From assembly GCF_015207285.1 (NCBI RefSeq), contig NZ_JADEXD010000004.1, positions 1-64,000 of the forward strand: a stretch of DNA of 64,000 bases, written 5' to 3'. This DNA is from Tychonema sp. LEGE 07203. Its GTDB lineage: Bacteria > Cyanobacteriota > Cyanobacteriia > Cyanobacteriales > Microcoleaceae. The notes below the pieces were generated by a model. It did no database searches, had not been told where the DNA came from, and worked only from the letters and a program-made list of their open reading frames with translations. Numbering within the stretch: the first letter of the stretch is position 1; the number at the start of each line of letters is the position of its first letter. Positions 34,720 through 52,530 of this stretch are shown here, piece by piece. The translations under genes and the position numbers were made by a program.

Positions 34720-35031
34720 TAGGTTAAAAATCTTAATATTTTTATATTATTACAGCCGATCGTCCTGTCTCAACTCTTGCCTCTGCCATTTTTCCTCTGC
34801 CTGTTGTGCGTAAGTGTCCCGTGCATCCTAGCTTCTAGCTTCATCCCTACATCTGGCGCATTCTATCTTCTTCCCGCCACAACCTGCCAATCTGCCAATC
34901 TGCCAATCTCCCCCAGCCCGTACCATTTCATAAAAAAAATTAATGCTCTGAAATAGCTGCAATTGGCAAAAAAACTGCTAGATTGCCGTAGAGCAAACAT
35001 TGAATTGCGTTCATTGGGCCACAGCAACACC

Positions 35032-36963
35032 ATGACCGAATCCAGCATCCCCACCAGAGCCGCCAGCCAAATAGACATCGGCAACGTCAACATCGGCAAC
35101 TTCCAAGTCGGCAGCATCAGCGGCAACAAATACAACGACTTCAACGCCAACGGCCGCCCCGATCCTGCAGATGTGCCAATTCCCAACTGGCAAATCTACC
35201 TCGACCTCAACAACAACGGTCAATTTGACTTTAACGAACCTTCCACCCTCACCAACGCCCAAGGCAACTACAGCTTCGTCAACCTGCCGCCGGGCACTTA
35301 CCAAGTTAGGGAAGTCCAGCAGCCGAACTTTCGCCAAACTACGCCAAATCCCGCGCCCATCGCGATTACCAGCGGGACAAATGCTGGCAATATTAATTTT
35401 GGCAACAATTTCAACGCCGGGACGATCGCCGGGACAAAATTCAACGACATCAACAGCAACGGCCGCCAAGAGCCAGGGGAACAACCCCTAGCTAACTGGC
35501 AAATTTACCTCGACCTCAACCGCAACAACAGGCTGGACGGCGGCGAACCTGTTACCCTGACAAACTTTCAAGGCAATTACGCTTTTGTCAATATTCCTGC
35601 AGATACATATGTGGTGAGAGAAGTCCAGCAACCGGGTTTTCGCCAAACTACGCCTGACCCGGGCCCGATAAACGTTACTTCCAACGCCACTATTAGCAAC
35701 GTCAATTTTGGCAATGTCTTTTTTGTCGGCAGCATCAGCGGTATCAAGTACAATGACCTGAATGCCAACAGCATCCGAGACGCGACGGACCCGCCTCTGG
35801 CTAACTGGCAAATTTATCTCGACCTCAACGGCAACAACAGCCTCGATCCGGGCGAACCGAATACCATCACTAACCCGCAAGGCAACTACACTTTTGGCAA
35901 TGTTTCCCCCGGCCGCTATTTGGTGAGGGAAGTTCAGCAACCGGGATGGGTTCAGACTACGCCGAATCCAGGGCCGATCGACATTACCGGCAACACTAAC
36001 GCTGTCGGCCTCAATTTCGGCAACAATTTCCCCACCGGCAGCATCAGCGGCTTCAAGTTCAACGACCTCAACGCTAACGGTATCAACGAACCGACGGAAC
36101 CGAGAGTTGCCAACTGGCCGATTTACCTCGACCTCAACAACAACAACGCCCGCGATCCGAACGAACCTTCGACTTTAACAAACCCCCAAGGTAATTTCTC
36201 TTTTATTAACTTGCCCCAAGGCACATATTTGGTGAGGGAAGTCCCGCAGCCGGGTTTTCGACAAACCACGCCAAATCCGACTCCGATTACCGTCGGTAAC
36301 GGCACAAATGCGACTAACCTCAGCTTTGGCAACGTGTTGGTAACGGGGACGATTAGCGGTGTGAAATTTAACGATTTTAATGCCAACGGCCGCCTCGATG
36401 CCGGGGAACCGCCGATCGCCAATACCCAAATTTACATCGACCTCAACAACAACAGCAGTTTAGATCCGGGCGAAGCGAGTACCTTGAGCGACAGTCAGGG
36501 GAATTACAGTTTCCGCAACGTTCCGGTAGGTACTTACGTAATCCGGGAAGTTCAGCCTCCGGGCTTCATTCAAACGACTCCGCCTGCGGTGGTTGTTGTC
36601 TCGTCAGATGTTCGGGCTAGCAGCATCGATTTGCTGACGGGAGAGGCTGAGAGTCGATCGGCTAAATCTTTGAGTGGCGACTCGCTGACGGATGGGGGCA
36701 AATCTGCGGGGGCGGCACCGGAGGCTTTGATGGCGGCGGATAGCTTGCTTTCGAGCGCCGGTCGTGCTATTTATCCAATTAGTGATTTTTTGGTCGATCG
36801 ACAAGCGGCGAGTTTAGGCAATCTTCCTAACTTTGGGCAACAAAATGTCGGTCGGGAGCCAAATACACAAGTGGGTGAATTTGTCAATAAAAATGAATTA
36901 GTTAATTGGGAGCTCGGAAACTCTTTCGTGTCGGCGAGTGCGAGAGATTGGTCGGTGATTTAG
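35032..36963 (+). CDS. SdrD B-like repeat protein (643 residues)
   Basis: The ATG at 35032 begins MTESSIPTRAASQIDIGNVN; an in-frame start 23 codons earlier looks non-coding. Five tandem units of about 100 residues occupy ~27-525. Each starts G(S/T)I(S/A)G-x-K(Y/F)NDxNxNG, contains IYLDLNNNGxxDxxEPxTLTN, then QGNYSFxNLPxGTYxVREVQ. These are SdrD B-type collagen-adhesin-like beta sandwiches; their DxNxNGxxD loops look Ca2+-binding. The final ~110 residues differ and include SIDLLTGEAESRSAKSLSGD and SLTDGGKSAG, also seen in the second SdrD protein. No signal peptide is present, so a non-Sec export route is inferred. Surface adhesion or matrix role is likely but unproven. Confidence 0.82.
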   Translation: MTESSIPTRAASQIDIGNVNIGNFQVGSISGNKYNDFNANGRPDPADVPIPNWQIYLDLNNNGQFDFNEPSTLTNAQGNYSFVNLPPGTYQVREVQQPNFRQTTPNPAPIAITSGTNAGNINFGNNFNAGTIAGTKFNDINSNGRQEPGEQPLANWQIYLDLNRNNRLDGGEPVTLTNFQGNYAFVNIPADTYVVREVQQPGFRQTTPDPGPINVTSNATISNVNFGNVFFVGSISGIKYNDLNANSIRDATDPPLANWQIYLDLNGNNSLDPGEPNTITNPQGNYTFGNVSPGRYLVREVQQPGWVQTTPNPGPIDITGNTNAVGLNFGNNFPTGSISGFKFNDLNANGINEPTEPRVANWPIYLDLNNNNARDPNEPSTLTNPQGNFSFINLPQGTYLVREVPQPGFRQTTPNPTPITVGNGTNATNLSFGNVLVTGTISGVKFNDFNANGRLDAGEPPIANTQIYIDLNNNSSLDPGEASTLSDSQGNYSFRNVPVGTYVIREVQPPGFIQTTPPAVVVVSSDVRASSIDLLTGEAESRSAKSLSGDSLTDGGKSAGAAPEALMAADSLLSSAGRAIYPISDFLVDRQAASLGNLPNFGQQNVGREPNTQVGEFVNKNELVNWELGNSFVSASARDWSVI

Positions 36964-37852
36964 GGAGGCAAAAAGCTCGATCGCCGGCAATCCCAAACCG
37001 CCGATCGAAATCAGCAAGAGATTAAAGGGCGATCGCGTGATACCTTATTGTTGGAAACCTCCAATACTCAAGCCTGAGTTCCGGCAACTCCGAAGCAGGC
37101 TTGTATATTGGGTGCAAGATTCAGAGGCAGTCGCATCGCAGGTGAGTGAGAAACTATCAGACAGTTCCCCCAAGGGCGACCGGCACATTTTCAGGCAAAG
37201 CAAGTCAGATCGAGTGCGGTAGTTCGATCGGTAATTGTTTGTTGTCGCTGGCAATCCCAGAGGGTGCGATCGGCTGTTCAAAGCCAACCGCGAGAAACAA
37301 TAACGATGTCGCCGGACTTGATATCAAGGGGTAGAAGTCAGTCAAGGGCTTTTTAAAGCTCGAAGCAGCAAGTATGTAGGAACACAAAATGCGTGGAAAT
37401 CTTGAAGATATTGCCCTCAAATTGCCAGGATTCTTCAAAACCTGATATACTTGCCAGCGACAAAGCTTGAGGCATTGTTGGTTGTGTCAGATGGGGAACA
37501 TTACCTCAAGCACAGACGTATGTAAAATCGAGTAGCCTTTGTCAGCGACTAGCAAAAGCTACTCAGCTATGGACAAGCGGCTCCAATAGTCTGTAATTTA
37601 CCGAAAAATTGGCTCAAAGCCCCGTCCTTATAGGACGGATTTCATGATAAAGTTACGTATTGTTGATACCCGAGATGTAAAAATCCGGTCTCAACTCTAT
37701 AATCCAAAAAATCTCAAATAGGTTGGGGCATCAATCTAAGGACTAGGCAATATCAGACAAGCTGTGCTTGCGTTTGCTGTTAGAATCCAGAATCCCCATA
37801 CCTTGAGGCTGGGGAGTATGTCAAGTGGATTTAGGTGTGAAGGAGAGAAATC
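36964..37852. other. Long spacer between the two SdrD-type genes
   Basis: These 889 bases hold only weak ORFs. Notable are an inverted repeat GAGTAGC (37530-37536)/GCTACTC (37558-37564) and a hairpin CCGTCCTTATAGGACGG (37622-37638). AAGGAGAG lies about eight bases before the next start codon (ATG at 37853). No gene is recognised. Confidence 0.5.
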
Positions 37853-40426
37853 ATGGCAGATTTAACTAACGAAGAGCGGATTGCCCAGCAATTACAAGTT
37901 GGGAATGCAGGCCCGGCAATTATAGGTATCAAGTTCAATGACTTGAATGCGGATGGGATCAGACAGGCAAATGAACCGGGTCTGGCAAACGTCCCCATTC
38001 TCCTCGAACCGGCGATCGGCAGCAACGGCATATTAGATACAGGAGATGTCTCCGTCCTTACAGACGCCAACGGAGGGTTCTCATTCATAAATCTGGTTCC
38101 CGGCAACTACGTACTCACAGAAACCACAGTACCCGCCGGCTTCCGTACTACGACTCCCAATCCCCTCGCTGTAACTGTTGGAAACACAAACGCCAACGTT
38201 TTCTTTGGCAACACATCAATTCCACAAAGCCGGATTGTTGGATGCAAATACCTAGACATAAATGGCGACGGCTTTCGAGACGGGAATGAACCGGGCATTA
38301 AAAATGTCAGGATATATCTTGATATAAATGGCAACGGCCAACGCGATGCAGGCGAACCCAACACCTTAACAGACAAAAATGGTGGGTGGTCGTTTAACGT
38401 AGCACCCGGAACCTACAAAGTTCGGGAAGAACGGATCGCACCACAAGTTGATGCAAACGGACTAAGAGTTAACAATCCGAGCGCAGAACCTTTAGAAACA
38501 CAAGATTTCCCCCAAAGCACCCCACCCAACAACATTCCCGTACTCGACGTAACGGTAGCCGCCGGCCAAACCTTTGCCTGCGCTCAAGTTGGTGACACTC
38601 CGCTCTATCAAATTGAAATTAACAAATTTCGGGACCTAGACCGCAGCGGCACTCGAAATGTGGTCAATGGAGTTTTGGAATCCCCCATTGCTAACGTACC
38701 CTTCATTTTAGATTTGAACGGGAACGGTCGCTGGGATGGAGCCGGCGCTGAACCAGTTGCCATCACCGATATCAACGGAGTTGCTACCTTTAAAAATTTG
38801 CGAGCTGCCAATTATTCAGTTTTGGAAGTTTTTCCCAGAACCTCTCTGAGCGAAGTAGGTGGGCCTAACATTCCTCCCGGCAATCTCGATGCTCCAGTAG
38901 CAACAACTCCCAACCCCGCTCTGGTTTCTGCACCAGGCCCGCAGGCACGGTTCCAGGCCACGATCAGCAGAGAGCAACCGCTGTTAGTAGCAGACTCAAG
39001 CTATACCCTGAAACCAAACGACCCTAAATTCGTAGACAACAACTTAGACGGCATCCAACAGCCAGGGGAACCTTCTATTGCAGCAACGGGTGTACGACCG
39101 ATTTTTGCGAACACGCCTTTGGCTTTCCCAGCGACTAACCCCTCACCAGCACTTACCTTTACTCCTGTGGGAGCTAATATAGGCGCTGGAACGAATGCTG
39201 GCGTGGGCAACACTCGACCTAACATCACTGTATTCAAATACAATGACCTGAACGGAAACGGTCGCTACGAGCCAATTCAGGGTGAAGCACCTCTTAGCGG
39301 TGTTACCGTCTTCCTCGACACCAACAATAACGGGGTTGTTGACACCGGAGAACAACAAATACAGACTAATGCCCAAGGCAGAGGAGCCTTTACCAACTTG
39401 GCAACGGGCAGTTACACGGTGCGAGAAGTCGTACAGGCTGGTTTCTCGCCTTCTACATCTGCTGCTGTTCCCGTGACTCTGAGCACTCAGGACGCTAACG
39501 TTACTTTTGCCAACACGCCGAACAGCAACATCACCGGTTGCAAATTCGAGGACTTTAACCTCAACAGCTATCGAGACGGAAACGAACCGGCGATTGCCAA
39601 CGTTACCATCTATCTCGATACCAATAACAACGGTGCTCTGGATGCAGGGGAACGCACTACCGTTACCGATCAGTTTGGTCGCTTTGCGTTCAACAATTTG
39701 ACTCCCGGTACTTACAACCTTCGAGAAGTACCTCCTCCTGGTTTCTTCCAGACTACTCCAGCGCTGAATATTGTTCTGGGCCCCAATCAAACTTTTACCT
39801 GCGCTTTGATTGGCAACTCTCGCACCTATGACCTACGGGTTCCTAAATTCCGAGACGACAACCGCAACGGCATACAAGATTCAGGCGAACCGCCTCTTGC
39901 CAATATCCCATTTACTCTGGATTTGAACAACAACGGCCGCTACGATGCGGCAACTGAACCTCTGGCAAGAACGGATGCTAACGGGATTGCTCTATTTCCC
40001 AATTTGTTCCCTGGCAACTACTCGGTTTTGGAAGTCTTCAACGATCCGAGTGTTCCCAATGAGTTCCCGATCGCAACCGGGCCCAATCCTGTTACCTTTA
40101 ACGTGCCGGGCCCGAATACTTCGCCTTCGGTGCCTCTACCAGCGGCAACTCCGCAAAGAGTCGGTCAAAGCATCGATTTGCTGACTGGTGACGCGGGTGT
40201 TGCGGCTGCTAGCACCGATCCTTTGACTGACGGTGGCGGTTCCGCTGTGGTGCAGGCTAGCAGTATCGATAGCTTGCTCGCTCCTGAGACAGCAGGCGTA
40301 AGTAGCTTTGTTGACTTCAACGGTTTGAAAGACGCGGCGGAAGCTTCGATCGTATCGTTTTTAGAAGCTCAGAAGCTGGACGATCAATTAATGTTGGGCG
40401 CTCCAACTTCGACTCCGCTGTTTTAA
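37853..40426 (+). CDS. SdrD B-like repeat protein (857 residues)
   Basis: ATG at 37853 has AAGGAGAG upstream. Seven SdrD-type units begin near residues 23, 127, 252, 398, 460, 561 and 660, each with a KF(N/R/E)DxNxNGxxxxxEP(x)LANV core followed by a DTNNNGxxD loop. Units 2-3 and 6-7 are paired: each pair shows a GCK(Y/F) start, an F(A/T)CAxxG end and then a unit ending NYSVLEVF, so a two-unit block was probably duplicated. Four cysteines in those pairs suggest disulfides, hence an extracellular place. The last ~85 residues hold SIDLLTGDAGVAAASTDPLT, then DGGGSA and SSIDSLL, close to the C-terminus of the other SdrD protein. No N-terminal signal peptide is seen. Confidence 0.82.
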   Translation: MADLTNEERIAQQLQVGNAGPAIIGIKFNDLNADGIRQANEPGLANVPILLEPAIGSNGILDTGDVSVLTDANGGFSFINLVPGNYVLTETTVPAGFRTTTPNPLAVTVGNTNANVFFGNTSIPQSRIVGCKYLDINGDGFRDGNEPGIKNVRIYLDINGNGQRDAGEPNTLTDKNGGWSFNVAPGTYKVREERIAPQVDANGLRVNNPSAEPLETQDFPQSTPPNNIPVLDVTVAAGQTFACAQVGDTPLYQIEINKFRDLDRSGTRNVVNGVLESPIANVPFILDLNGNGRWDGAGAEPVAITDINGVATFKNLRAANYSVLEVFPRTSLSEVGGPNIPPGNLDAPVATTPNPALVSAPGPQARFQATISREQPLLVADSSYTLKPNDPKFVDNNLDGIQQPGEPSIAATGVRPIFANTPLAFPATNPSPALTFTPVGANIGAGTNAGVGNTRPNITVFKYNDLNGNGRYEPIQGEAPLSGVTVFLDTNNNGVVDTGEQQIQTNAQGRGAFTNLATGSYTVREVVQAGFSPSTSAAVPVTLSTQDANVTFANTPNSNITGCKFEDFNLNSYRDGNEPAIANVTIYLDTNNNGALDAGERTTVTDQFGRFAFNNLTPGTYNLREVPPPGFFQTTPALNIVLGPNQTFTCALIGNSRTYDLRVPKFRDDNRNGIQDSGEPPLANIPFTLDLNNNGRYDAATEPLARTDANGIALFPNLFPGNYSVLEVFNDPSVPNEFPIATGPNPVTFNVPGPNTSPSVPLPAATPQRVGQSIDLLTGDAGVAAASTDPLTDGGGSAVVQASSIDSLLAPETAGVSSFVDFNGLKDAAEASIVSFLEAQKLDDQLMLGAPTSTPLF

Positions 40427-47779: not shown

Positions 47780-49598
47780 ATGTACTTAGTAAAAAACTTT
47801 CACATTAAAAAAGAGCTGACTCCCTGGCTGGGCGGGCTCCTCGCCACCGGATTGATTGCAGGAGTAGGCTACACAGCTTACAGCCAATTCGCAGTCCAAC
47901 AGCGTAGCGAAACCGGGCGCAAGGAAAAAACCGTTGCTGTAGAAAGGCTCAACCTGCCGATTACAATTTCGGCAAACGGCACAATTGTCCCCGAACGTTC
48001 CGTCAACGTCAGCCCCAAAACTTCAGGAATGCTCAAAAGTTTGCTTGTCAGCGAAGGAGATAGCGTTGAAAAAGGGCAGATTCTCGCCTACATGGACGAC
48101 TCCAACCTGCAAGGGCAACTTACCCAAAATCGCGGACAACTCGCAAGCGCCGAAGCAAACTTGCAAAAATTGCTCAACGGCAATCGAACCCAAGATATTG
48201 CTGCGGCTAAGGCAGTTTTATCAGAACAACAGGCAAGTCTGGAAAAATTGCTCAACGGCAATCGAACCCAAGATGTTGCTGTAGCCGAGGCAAAACTAGC
48301 AGAACAACAGGCAAACTTGCAAAAATTGCTCAACGGCAATCGAACCCAAGATGTTGCTGTCGCCGAGGCAAAACTAGCAGAACAACAGGCAAATTTACAA
48401 AAATTGCTTGAGGGGAAATCGGCCTGAAGATATCGCCCAAGCAAGTGCCAAACTCAAAGATGCTGAATACGCTGAAAATCAGGCAGAGGAAGAGTTTCAG
48501 AGAAATCAAGAACTCTATAATGCTGGAGCCATTGCTTTGCAAATTGTCAACAATTCCCGCACCGCGCGCGATCGAGCCGGCACGCAAGTCAAACAAGCCG
48601 AACAAGCTGTAGCTTTGCTGAAAGCGGGTGCTCGCCCCCAAGAAATCGCAGCAGCGAGGGCTGCAGTGGAGCAGAAACGGCAAGCTGTGGCCCTAGCGCG
48701 ATCGGGCGCGCGCCCCGAAGATATCGCTGCAGGACGGGCTGCAGTGGAGCAAAAACGGCAAGCTTTGGCCTTGGTGCGATCGGGCGCGCGCCCCGAAGAA
48801 ATCGCCCAAGCCCGCGCCGCTGTCGAGCAAAAACAGCAAGCTTTGGCGCTGCTAGAAGCCGGTTCTCGCCCCGAAGAAATCGACCAAGCCCGCGCCCAAG
48901 TTCTCTCCGCTAAAGGCAGCCTGCAAAGCGTTCAAGCCCTGATCGATGACACTGTGTTGCGGGCTCCTTTTAGCGGCACTGTCACCCGCAAATACGCAGA
49001 TCCGGGCGCTTTCGTGACTCCCACGACGGCGGGAAGTGCAGTTTCTTCGGCAACTTCTTCTTCGATTTTGTCCTTAGCTTCAAAAAATCAATTAATCGCA
49101 AACGTAGCAGAAACTAATATTGCTCAGATTCAGATCGGCCAAGCTGCGTCTATTCAAGCCGATGCTTTTGCAGGAAAGACTTTTGCCGGTAAAATCACTC
49201 AAATTTCGCCTCAGTCGATCGTCCAGCAAAATGTAACGAGTTTCGAGGTAAAAGCCGCAATTATTAATGATGATAAAGAAATACTGCGTTCTGGGATGAA
49301 TGTCAACGTAGAGTTTAAAGCAGGCGAACTCAAAAAGGTTTTGGTAGTCCCCACTGTGGCAATTGTCCGCCAACAAAGAGAAACTGGAGTATTTGTTCCC
49401 GGTGGAAAAGATGGCAAACCTGCTTTTATGCCGATTAAAACTGGTATGACGGTGGATGACAAGACAGAAGTGCGATCGGGTTTGAAAGGAAATGAAAAAG
49501 TGCTGATTAGTGTACCCGCCGGATTGCGGCCGAAATCCCAAAATCCATCGGGCGGGATACCGGGTTTGCAACCAGGTGGTAGAACGCGATTGCGTTAG
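47780..49598 (+). pseudogene. HlyD/DevB-type membrane fusion protein with frameshift in repeat array
   Basis: The first part (ends 48427) has a TM anchor (~20-38), a biotinyl-lipoyl-like half (SPKTSGMLKSLLVSEGDSV, then EKGQILAYMDDS) and three copies of a 26-residue coiled-coil unit (LLNGNRTQDVAVAEAKLAEQ). At 48412-48415 there is a run of four G. With three G the frame would read LLEGNRPEDIAQA and go on into the second part (from ~48411 to 49598). That part has four more 26-residue units (SGARPEEIAQARAAVEQKQQ type), LIDDTVLRAPFSGTVTRKY and the beta-barrel. So one G insertion splits a ~600-residue adaptor. Sequencing error, true mutation or recoding are all possible. Confidence 0.8.
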
Positions 49599-51066: not shown

Positions 51067-52530
51067 TTATCTGCGTGCATCTGCGGTTAAAGATTCCAAA
51101 TCTGCCAGCAATGTTAGATTGAGACAATTTAAGATACTAGATTTAATCGGGCGCTTTTCATCCCAAAATACCATTGATGAATAAAAGCTAATTGCAGCAG
51201 ATGAATTCAAAATCTCAAAAGTTTTACGTGCGATTCCCTCGTCTTCAAAGCTGACAAAATAAACAGTATCATCAAATATTACAGGTTTATTAGCAATTGC
51301 ACCAATTAATCTGAAATTCAAATTTTTATAAAGTCCGCAAATGGCTCTTTTCCAAGATTTAAAACTATAATCGCCAACTCCAAAAACAGAAAAGCGAGGA
51401 TTATGTTGATAAATCTTGCTTTTGCGATTGTCTAGATATGGTGCGTTATCTTCGAGATAACGCCAGGTTTTAGGAGCTATTTGTCTGATAGATTCGGTTG
51501 ATTCGCCAATAAATTTTTGAGTTACTAAAATATAGCGATTTGTGGCATTAATGCGATTTTGAGCGACATCCGAGCCTTTAAGTAGCGGAAATAGATAAGT
51601 TTCCTCAAGCTCGACAGCTTCCCCAAATCCATTGACAAAAAGATTATCAATTTTCCGAAACTCCATCACATTCGAGCAGTCATGCTTTACCCCCGATCGC
51701 CATTTCGTACCTGATTTAACAGCATATAAATTACTCAATTTATTGAAAGAATCTATATCTTTAATTAGAAGATTATTTTGATAGCCTATGCGGTGGGATT
51801 CTGAACTTTCTAAACTGCTAAATACATCGCAGAAGTAGTTTTGTGAGCTTGAGTCAAACTGACAAAATAACAAACAGGCATCCACATTTGCATTAAAATA
51901 CTTTTTAGCATCTATTTTGTAAGTTGCACACCTAGCGAGATTAAGTTTTTTTGAATGAATGTAGTTCAATAACTTTCTGGCAACAGAAGTCTTGCAAAGC
52001 ATTGCCAGAGTTGCGTCACGATTTTGCAACCAATGAATTGCTTTAATTAGCATCCATTCTGAGATGTCAAAATTACTTTTACCTGTGAGTGCATCTAAAC
52101 CAGCGTGCTTTTGAAAATTACTTTTTTTAGGCAAATTTTCACTACCAATAGTTCCTTGGTGTGAGTTTGTCACCCAAGGAAAGTTACCAAGTACCAACAC
52201 CTGATGATTGAATTGCTTAATTAATGATGTCCAGTCAAACTCAAAAAAATCTCCGTGCTTAACCTCACATCTCTCATCCTGTAACAATTCATGTTTGGCT
52301 CGTAATTCTGTTAAGTAAATTTGATTGATTTCAACTCCGATAATCTTGCTGGCGGATGGAAAGGAATTTACAGCAGCTTGAATGAAATTACCTATCCCGC
52401 AAGTTGGCTCAATGATGACTTTGGGGTTAATATCAAGTTCTATCAATTTCCGACACACCATCTCAGCTAATTCTGGGGGTGTTTGAAAATCTCCGTATTC
52501 TAGTTTTGTTTTGCGAACTGTGGAAATCAT
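51067..52530 (-). CDS. N6-adenine DNA methyltransferase (Eco57I/TaqI-like), orphan
   Basis: The 487-residue protein has SAM motif I (IIEPTCGIGNFIQAAVN), acidic motif II (IIGVEINQIYL) and the catalytic motif IV in variant form (VLGNFPWVTN rather than NPPY/NPPF). A C-terminal half with SVFGVGDYSFKSWKRAICGL resembles a target-recognition domain. It should methylate adenine in a specific DNA site. No restriction endonuclease is beside it. The last ten codons (ending LTADARR) lie inside a dispersed ACCGCAGATGCACGCAGATA repeat, so the C-terminus may have been altered by repeat insertion. It is divergent from higB. Confidence 0.85.
   Translation of the reverse strand: MISTVRKTKLEYGDFQTPPELAEMVCRKLIELDINPKVIIEPTCGIGNFIQAAVNSFPSASKIIGVEINQIYLTELRAKHELLQDERCEVKHGDFFEFDWTSLIKQFNHQVLVLGNFPWVTNSHQGTIGSENLPKKSNFQKHAGLDALTGKSNFDISEWMLIKAIHWLQNRDATLAMLCKTSVARKLLNYIHSKKLNLARCATYKIDAKKYFNANVDACLLFCQFDSSSQNYFCDVFSSLESSESHRIGYQNNLLIKDIDSFNKLSNLYAVKSGTKWRSGVKHDCSNVMEFRKIDNLFVNGFGEAVELEETYLFPLLKGSDVAQNRINATNRYILVTQKFIGESTESIRQIAPKTWRYLEDNAPYLDNRKSKIYQHNPRFSVFGVGDYSFKSWKRAICGLYKNLNFRLIGAIANKPVIFDDTVYFVSFEDEGIARKTFEILNSSAAISFYSSMVFWDEKRPIKSSILNCLNLTLLADLESLTADARR

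What the first reader, a model, noticed from the sequence alone, without database searches (positions are those of the whole stretch)
35032..40426. Two SdrD-type repeat proteins share a C-terminal SIDLLTG(E/D)A...LTDGG.SA motif and lack signal peptides
Both proteins end with SIDLLTG(D/E)A followed by a (S/T)DxLTDGGxSA segment and then SIDSLL or DSLLSS. The tails differ elsewhere. Without a Sec signal, the shared tail is a good candidate for a C-terminal export or anchoring signal, such as for a type I secretion system. This would be a secreted surface or sheath system specific to the filament.
Basis: partly seen in the sequence, partly recalled or inferred. Interest (0 to 1): 0.6.

Follow-up and report, generated by a model that had tools for sequence, protein, structure and literature searches.

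The report
Decayed type I export tail
Two neighbouring surface-type repeat proteins of a Microcoleus-group filamentous cyanobacterium share a real tail, which in one of them (and by inference in the other) is a worn-down copy of the usual C-terminal export signal of calcium-repeat (RTX) proteins, so the guess of type I secretion fits their origin while present export is unproven.

Summary
In detail: both proteins (P1, 35032-36963; P2, 37853-40426) carry SIDLLTG(E/D)A...DxLTDGGxSA...DSLL near the C-terminus, lack Sec signals, and are the only carriers found. The tandem pair occurs throughout Microcoleus sensu lato and in one sister genus, in no other genus sampled. The named motif is not the export signal. 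In the sister genus, P1 orthologues end in a clear cyanobacterial type I secretion (T1SS) C-terminal domain (about 54 bits; 4,000 shuffles reach at most 12). The Microcoleus P1 tail aligns to that domain end to end without gaps. SIDLLTG...LTDGG is the linker just before it, and the linker is all that P2 demonstrably shares. P1's closest non-orthologous relatives are DUF4347-SdrD_B-RTX proteins. In Microcoleus the P1 domain has worn away: dN/dS 0.82, against 0.12 for its repeats and 0.28 for a genuine T1SS tail. LTDGG survives in only a few genomes, and P2 loses the motif in several. Both tails are modelled as disordered. 'Anchor' and 'filament sheath' have no support.

The parts
35032..36963 (+). 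P1: five SdrD_B repeats (10 EF-hand-like DxNxNxxxxxxE loops), no Cys, no Sec signal, C-terminal tail
36622..36738 (+). P1 linker SIDLLTGEAE...DSLTDGGKSAG...; conserved as R-ASSIDLLTG(D/E) in nearly all P1 orthologues; the part shared with P2
   Evidence: dN/dS 0.42
36739..36960 (+). P1 degenerate T1SS C-terminal domain (DSLLSS...SVI, 74 aa), aligns gap-free to the canonical cyanobacterial RTX/T1SS tail
   Evidence: dN/dS 0.82; disordered
37853..40426 (+). P2: SdrD_B/Cna-B-like domains, 8 EF-hand-like loops, 4 nearly invariant Cys, no Sec signal
40169..40267 (+). P2 linker SIDLLTGDAG...DPLTDGGGSA..., homologous to the P1 linker
40268..40423 (+). P2 C-terminal 52 aa (DSLLAPETAGVSSFVDFNGLKD...TPLF); relation to the T1SS domain suggestive only (shuffle p 0.055)

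Best explanation
P1 and P2 are calcium-loop SdrD_B surface-type proteins. P1 most likely descends from a DUF4347-SdrD_B-RTX protein exported by type I secretion (HlyB/HlyD/TolC). It lost the DUF4347 head and the RTX repeats but kept the linker (SIDLLTG...DxLT) and the 74-residue C-terminal export domain. That domain is still plain in the sister genus and worn down in Microcoleus. The shared motif is the linker in front of the domain, present in both members of the tandem pair. The most likely present-day mechanism (inferred, about even odds) is that the Ca2+-loop domains stay unfolded in the Ca-poor cytoplasm and the disordered C-terminus, used now with little sequence specificity, still leads the protein through the cell's general T1SS, with folding on Ca2+ outside. 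Shown here: tail homology, the sister-genus T1SS domain, machinery in the genome, relaxed constraint, predicted disorder. Inferred: export itself, the route, the Ca2+ step, and the same route for P2.
For: Three sister-genus P1 orthologues (68-71% identity) have the SIDLLTG/SLDLITG linker followed by D(S/K)FL(V/L)G...AIL(N/D)F...L.SL.N.LS..QLNI, the T1SS domain. Two of them score 54-55 bits with a profile of 27 canonical tails; 4,000 shuffles give at most 12 bits. The Microcoleus P1 tails alone align over 75 of 75 columns without gaps to the end of the domain (hhalign 23.2; 200 column shuffles reach at most 21.4), and with the sister genus E = 4.9e-9. Mean BLOSUM in register is 0.22, best other offset -0.49. 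P1's closest non-orthologous relatives are DUF4347-SdrD_B-RTX proteins with canonical tails. The genome holds a HlyB-like transporter (718 bits), a TolC-like protein and 20 canonical-tail proteins. Neither protein has a Sec signal. TolC-dependent export of a protein without signal peptide is reported in Anabaena (HesF, PMC4390845).
Against: The domain is nearly neutral in Microcoleus (dN/dS 0.82; linker 0.42; repeats 0.12), whereas a genuine T1SS tail in the same genus has 0.28. Canonical conserved positions are not the ones P1 conserves (Spearman 0.12). The terminal [FLI][VAI] pair reported for T1SS substrates (PMC8861453) is in 16 of 27 canonical but 1 of 24 P1 and 1 of 22 P2 tails. Some P1 orthologues are cut short at the C-terminus. 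P2 gives no significant match to the domain. SdrD_B-only proteins of related genera have neither a Sec signal nor any such tail. No T1SS ABC gene was found beside the pair.
Confidence: 0.6

Rival explanations
1. Dead relic: the tail is a T1SS domain that no longer works; P1 and P2 leave the cell by another route (vesicles, lysis, an unknown exporter) or stay inside.
For: dN/dS 0.82 in the domain against 0.28 in a working one; conserved positions not kept; terminal pair lost; SdrD_B-only proteins of other genera have no tail at all. SdrD_B proteins were reported in Spirulina extracellular vesicles (PMC11635480).
Against: The tail is retained as an open frame in almost all genomes although it is nearly unconstrained; the linker keeps moderate constraint (0.42); many lineages keep a terminal D-(F/L/W)-x-hydrophobic end.
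Confidence: 0.35
2. Dedicated signal: SIDLLTG...LTDGG itself is a specific recognition motif for a private export or anchoring system of the filament.
For: Motif nearly invariant in P1 orthologues and present in P2 of this genome and of a sister-genus genome.
Against: LTDGG and even SIDLLTG are lost in many P2 orthologues; no other protein carries the motif in 40 relatives, 386 genomes of the phylum or 291 of the order; it lies 85-113 residues from the end; no dedicated transporter gene was found beside the pair.
Confidence: 0.08
3. The tail is just a low-complexity, disordered linker, and the resemblance to the T1SS domain is coincidence.
For: Both tails are predicted disordered (pLDDT about 25); no Pfam or NCBIfam match in the P1 tail.
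Against: Sister-genus orthologues match the T1SS profile far above shuffles; the alignment is end to end and gap-free.
Confidence: 0.06

Closest known systems
Cyanobacterial RTX / type I secretion substrates with DUF4347-SdrD_B-RTX architecture (own genome: C44, 1508 aa; C113, 1662 aa)
   Same: SdrD_B repeats (P1's best outside matches of this architecture about 43-52% identical), no Sec signal seen, homologous C-terminal domain (P1)
   Different: P1/P2 lack DUF4347 and RTX nonapeptides; the C-terminal domain is degenerate in P1 and not demonstrable in P2
HesF (Alr0267) of Anabaena sp. PCC 7120, TolC(HgdD)-dependent exoprotein without signal peptide (PMC4390845)
   Same: Filamentous cyanobacterium, exported protein without signal peptide
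   Different: Sequence not compared here; export of P1/P2 not shown
SdrD / Cna-B MSCRAMM adhesins of Gram-positive bacteria
   Same: B-type domains with EF-hand-like loops; Foldseek top hit of P2 is S. aureus SdrD
   Different: No LPXTG anchor, no signal peptide; far below the NCBIfam SdrD cut-off (77.8 against 2500 bits)

Membership tests
RTX / type I secretion substrate | Homologous C-terminal T1SS domain | tested here: met
   P1: clear in the sister genus, degenerate but colinear in Microcoleus. Not met significantly for P2.
RTX / type I secretion substrate | RTX nonapeptide repeats | tested here: not met
   No PF00353 match in P1 or P2 or in the P1 tails; the control tail matches at 8.7e-24.
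RTX / type I secretion substrate | No Sec signal peptide | tested here: met
   Hydropathy check only.
RTX / type I secretion substrate | Terminal residue pair [FLI][VAI] (PMC8861453) | tested here: not met
   1/24 P1, 1/22 P2, 16/27 canonical; neither window protein has it.
RTX / type I secretion substrate | T1SS transporter present | tested here: met
   HlyB-like (718 bits, just below the 725.55 cut-off) and TolC-like in the genome, not linked to the pair; the nearby HlyD/MacB-like genes are of MacAB/DevB type.
RTX / type I secretion substrate | Exported in a T1SS-dependent way | not testable with these tools
   Needs fractionation and hlyB/tolC mutants.
Gram-positive SdrD (MSCRAMM) adhesin | SdrD_B repeats | tested here: met
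   PF17210 E = 1.3e-50 and 1.4e-54.
Gram-positive SdrD (MSCRAMM) adhesin | Sec signal and LPXTG wall anchor | tested here: not met
   Direct reading.

The most novel reading that the evidence does not exclude
P1/P2 represent RTX-less T1SS cargo whose secretion signal has been freed from sequence constraint, the Ca2+ loops of the SdrD_B domains taking over the role of RTX repeats in keeping the chain export-competent. This would be a natural series from intact to worn signal in orthologous genes.
Probability: 0.2. Interest if true: 0.55.

Novelty: new variant of a known kind. Interest (0 to 1): 0.33.

Why it matters
Many cyanobacterial surface proteins lack any recognisable signal. This pair gives a series, from a recognisable T1SS domain in the sister genus to a worn one in Microcoleus, in orthologous genes with a partly fixed neighbourhood. 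With it one can ask how much of a T1SS signal is needed for export, and whether calcium-loop repeats can replace RTX repeats.

Tried and rejected
Search for further tail-bearing proteins in the own genome, 40 relatives, 386 genomes of the phylum and 291 of the order: none convincing. A weak hit to a 3365-aa RTX protein (E = 0.0016) led to the T1SS homology; a 1018-aa hit at E = 0.007 lacks the motif and was set aside as chance. Pfam and NCBIfam on the P1 tails: no family. P2 C-terminus as a T1SS domain: best-scoring place in the whole window protein lies exactly at DSLL, but shuffle p 0.055 and no profile support, so left open. Reading the linker as degenerate RTX repeats (DLLTG, DPLTDGG): a resemblance only, no test made. 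Whether P1 keeps the canonical conserved positions: no. Cys pairs in P2 as proof of export: all four cysteines in 21 of 22 orthologues, but the exception (L045) loses one from each domain, so pairing is unclear. Rfam: no hit in the window. Literature: no paper on this pair found; SdrD_B proteins in Spirulina vesicles (PMC11635480) are the nearest report.

Full report
What is there. The two reading frames at 35032-36963 (P1, 643 aa) and 37853-40426 (P2, 857 aa) encode SdrD_B repeat proteins (PF17210, E = 1.3e-50 and 1.4e-54). P1 has five repeats with ten DxNxNxxxxxxE-like loops and no cysteine; P2 has eight such loops and four cysteines. The shared tail motif is as described, and its similarity is far beyond shuffled sequence (score 78 against 32 +/- 5.8, 0 of 5,000; profile comparison E = 3.8e-6). 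It starts 113 and 85 residues before the C-termini. Neither N-terminus has a Sec-like hydrophobic core.

Distribution. Named contigs with P1 belong to Microcoleus, Tychonema, Oscillatoriales and similar records. The pair is tandem, in the same order, with a partly conserved neighbourhood (short-chain dehydrogenase, hemerythrin, two M16-type peptidases) in the genus and in the sister genus g17. Outside these two genera the tail was not found in 386 genomes of the phylum (P1 tail) or 291 of the order (P2 tail), apart from marginal hits. In the own genome the IDLLTG pattern is confined to these two genes. The other clear SdrD_B proteins of the genome (C44, C113) have a DUF4347 head and RTX repeats with a canonical T1SS tail, and not this motif.

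How the motif varies. P1 orthologues nearly all read R-ASSIDLLTG(D/E) or a close variant, but the second half is mostly DPLTDAxxYAGE; LTDGG occurs only here and in near relatives. P2 orthologues vary widely (SIDPVTGGT, LDLVTGGT, DPLTEGG) and several lack the first half.

What the tail is. In the three sister-genus genomes the P1 orthologue has the linker (RSIDLLTG or RSLDLITG ... DP(V/L)T(D/N)) followed by D(S/K)FL(V/L)G...AIL(N/D)F...L.SL.N.LS..QLNI. This is the C-terminal domain of cyanobacterial RTX proteins: the two orthologues tested score 54-55 bits with a profile of 27 canonical tails, and 4,000 shuffles reach at most 12 bits. The Microcoleus P1 tails, used without the sister genus, align to the canonical profile over 75 of 75 columns without a gap, ending at the C-terminus (hhalign 23.2, E = 0.0017; 200 column shuffles at most 21.4); with the sister genus the probability is 96% and E = 4.9e-9. 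In register the mean BLOSUM score is 0.22, against at best -0.49 at any other offset (the joint alignment was made by MAFFT, so this leans somewhat towards the register). The named motif is thus the linker in front of the domain. P1's best non-orthologous relatives are DUF4347-SdrD_B-RTX proteins with canonical tails, which points to descent from such a protein by loss of head and RTX repeats; this step is inference, no tree was built.

Is it still a signal? In Microcoleus the domain has dN/dS 0.82 and the linker 0.42, against 0.12 for the repeats. In an orthologous RTX protein set of the same genus the T1SS tail has 0.28 and the body 0.17; only one control family was used. In the sister genus the P1 domain is intermediate (0.58, three pairs). 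Positions conserved in canonical tails are not those conserved in P1 (Spearman 0.12; 5 of 72 circular shifts as high). The terminal pair [FLI][VAI] reported for T1SS substrates (PMC8861453) is nearly absent. Against complete decay, the frame is kept open almost everywhere and many lineages keep a D-(F/L/W)-x-hydrophobic end. Both tails are predicted disordered (the P1 model is poor overall, pLDDT 54). P2 gives no significant match to the domain, though its best-scoring place is exactly at DSLL (p 0.055).

Machinery and precedent. The genome holds a HlyB-like transporter (718 bits, just under the curated cut-off), a TolC-like protein and 20 proteins with the canonical tail. None of the transporter genes is linked to the pair; the HlyD/MacB-like genes 7-10 kb downstream are of the MacAB/DevB kind. 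In Anabaena, HesF is exported in a TolC-dependent way without a signal peptide (PMC4390845). RTX proteins carry an uncleaved C-terminal signal of about 60 residues and stay unfolded until they meet Ca2+ outside (PMC3034196). The EF-hand-like loops of the SdrD_B domains could serve the same end; that is inference.

Verdict. The reading is partly right: T1SS ancestry is well supported for P1 and only inferred for P2; the motif itself is a linker; present function is open, with worn-but-used and dead relic close to even. Anchoring and a filament-specific sheath system have no support. SdrD_B-only proteins of related genera have neither signal nor tail, so if they are exported another route exists.

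Noticed in passing
window 47780-49598: The HlyD-like membrane-fusion gene is split into two overlapping frames (215 and 396 aa) at the end of a 78-bp tandem repeat array (48155-48408): a frameshift or an assembly error.
   Followed up: partly
P2 (window 37853-40426) and orthologues: Exactly four cysteines at fixed places (C131, C243, C563, C650), also in the sister genus; L045 lacks C243 and C563. Suggests disulfides and an oxidising location, pairing unclear.
   Followed up: partly
L056:7202-7567: In genome G007 only a 122-aa tail piece of P1 lies before P2; the SdrD_B repeats are missing, so P1 seems lost there.
   Followed up: no
L209, L210, L211, L212, L213, L214, L215: SdrD_B-only proteins of 549-863 aa in other genera of the family have neither a Sec-like N-terminus nor an RTX/T1SS tail; how they are exported, if at all, is open.
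   Followed up: no
window 34960-35031: The translation upstream of the P1 ATG (AKKLLDCRRANIE.RSLGxxNT) is conserved in many genomes of the genus: an earlier TTG start or a conserved 5' leader.
   Followed up: no
window 51067-52530: A lone 487-aa frame with a borderline TaqI_C specificity domain match, possibly part of a restriction-modification gene.
   Followed up: no
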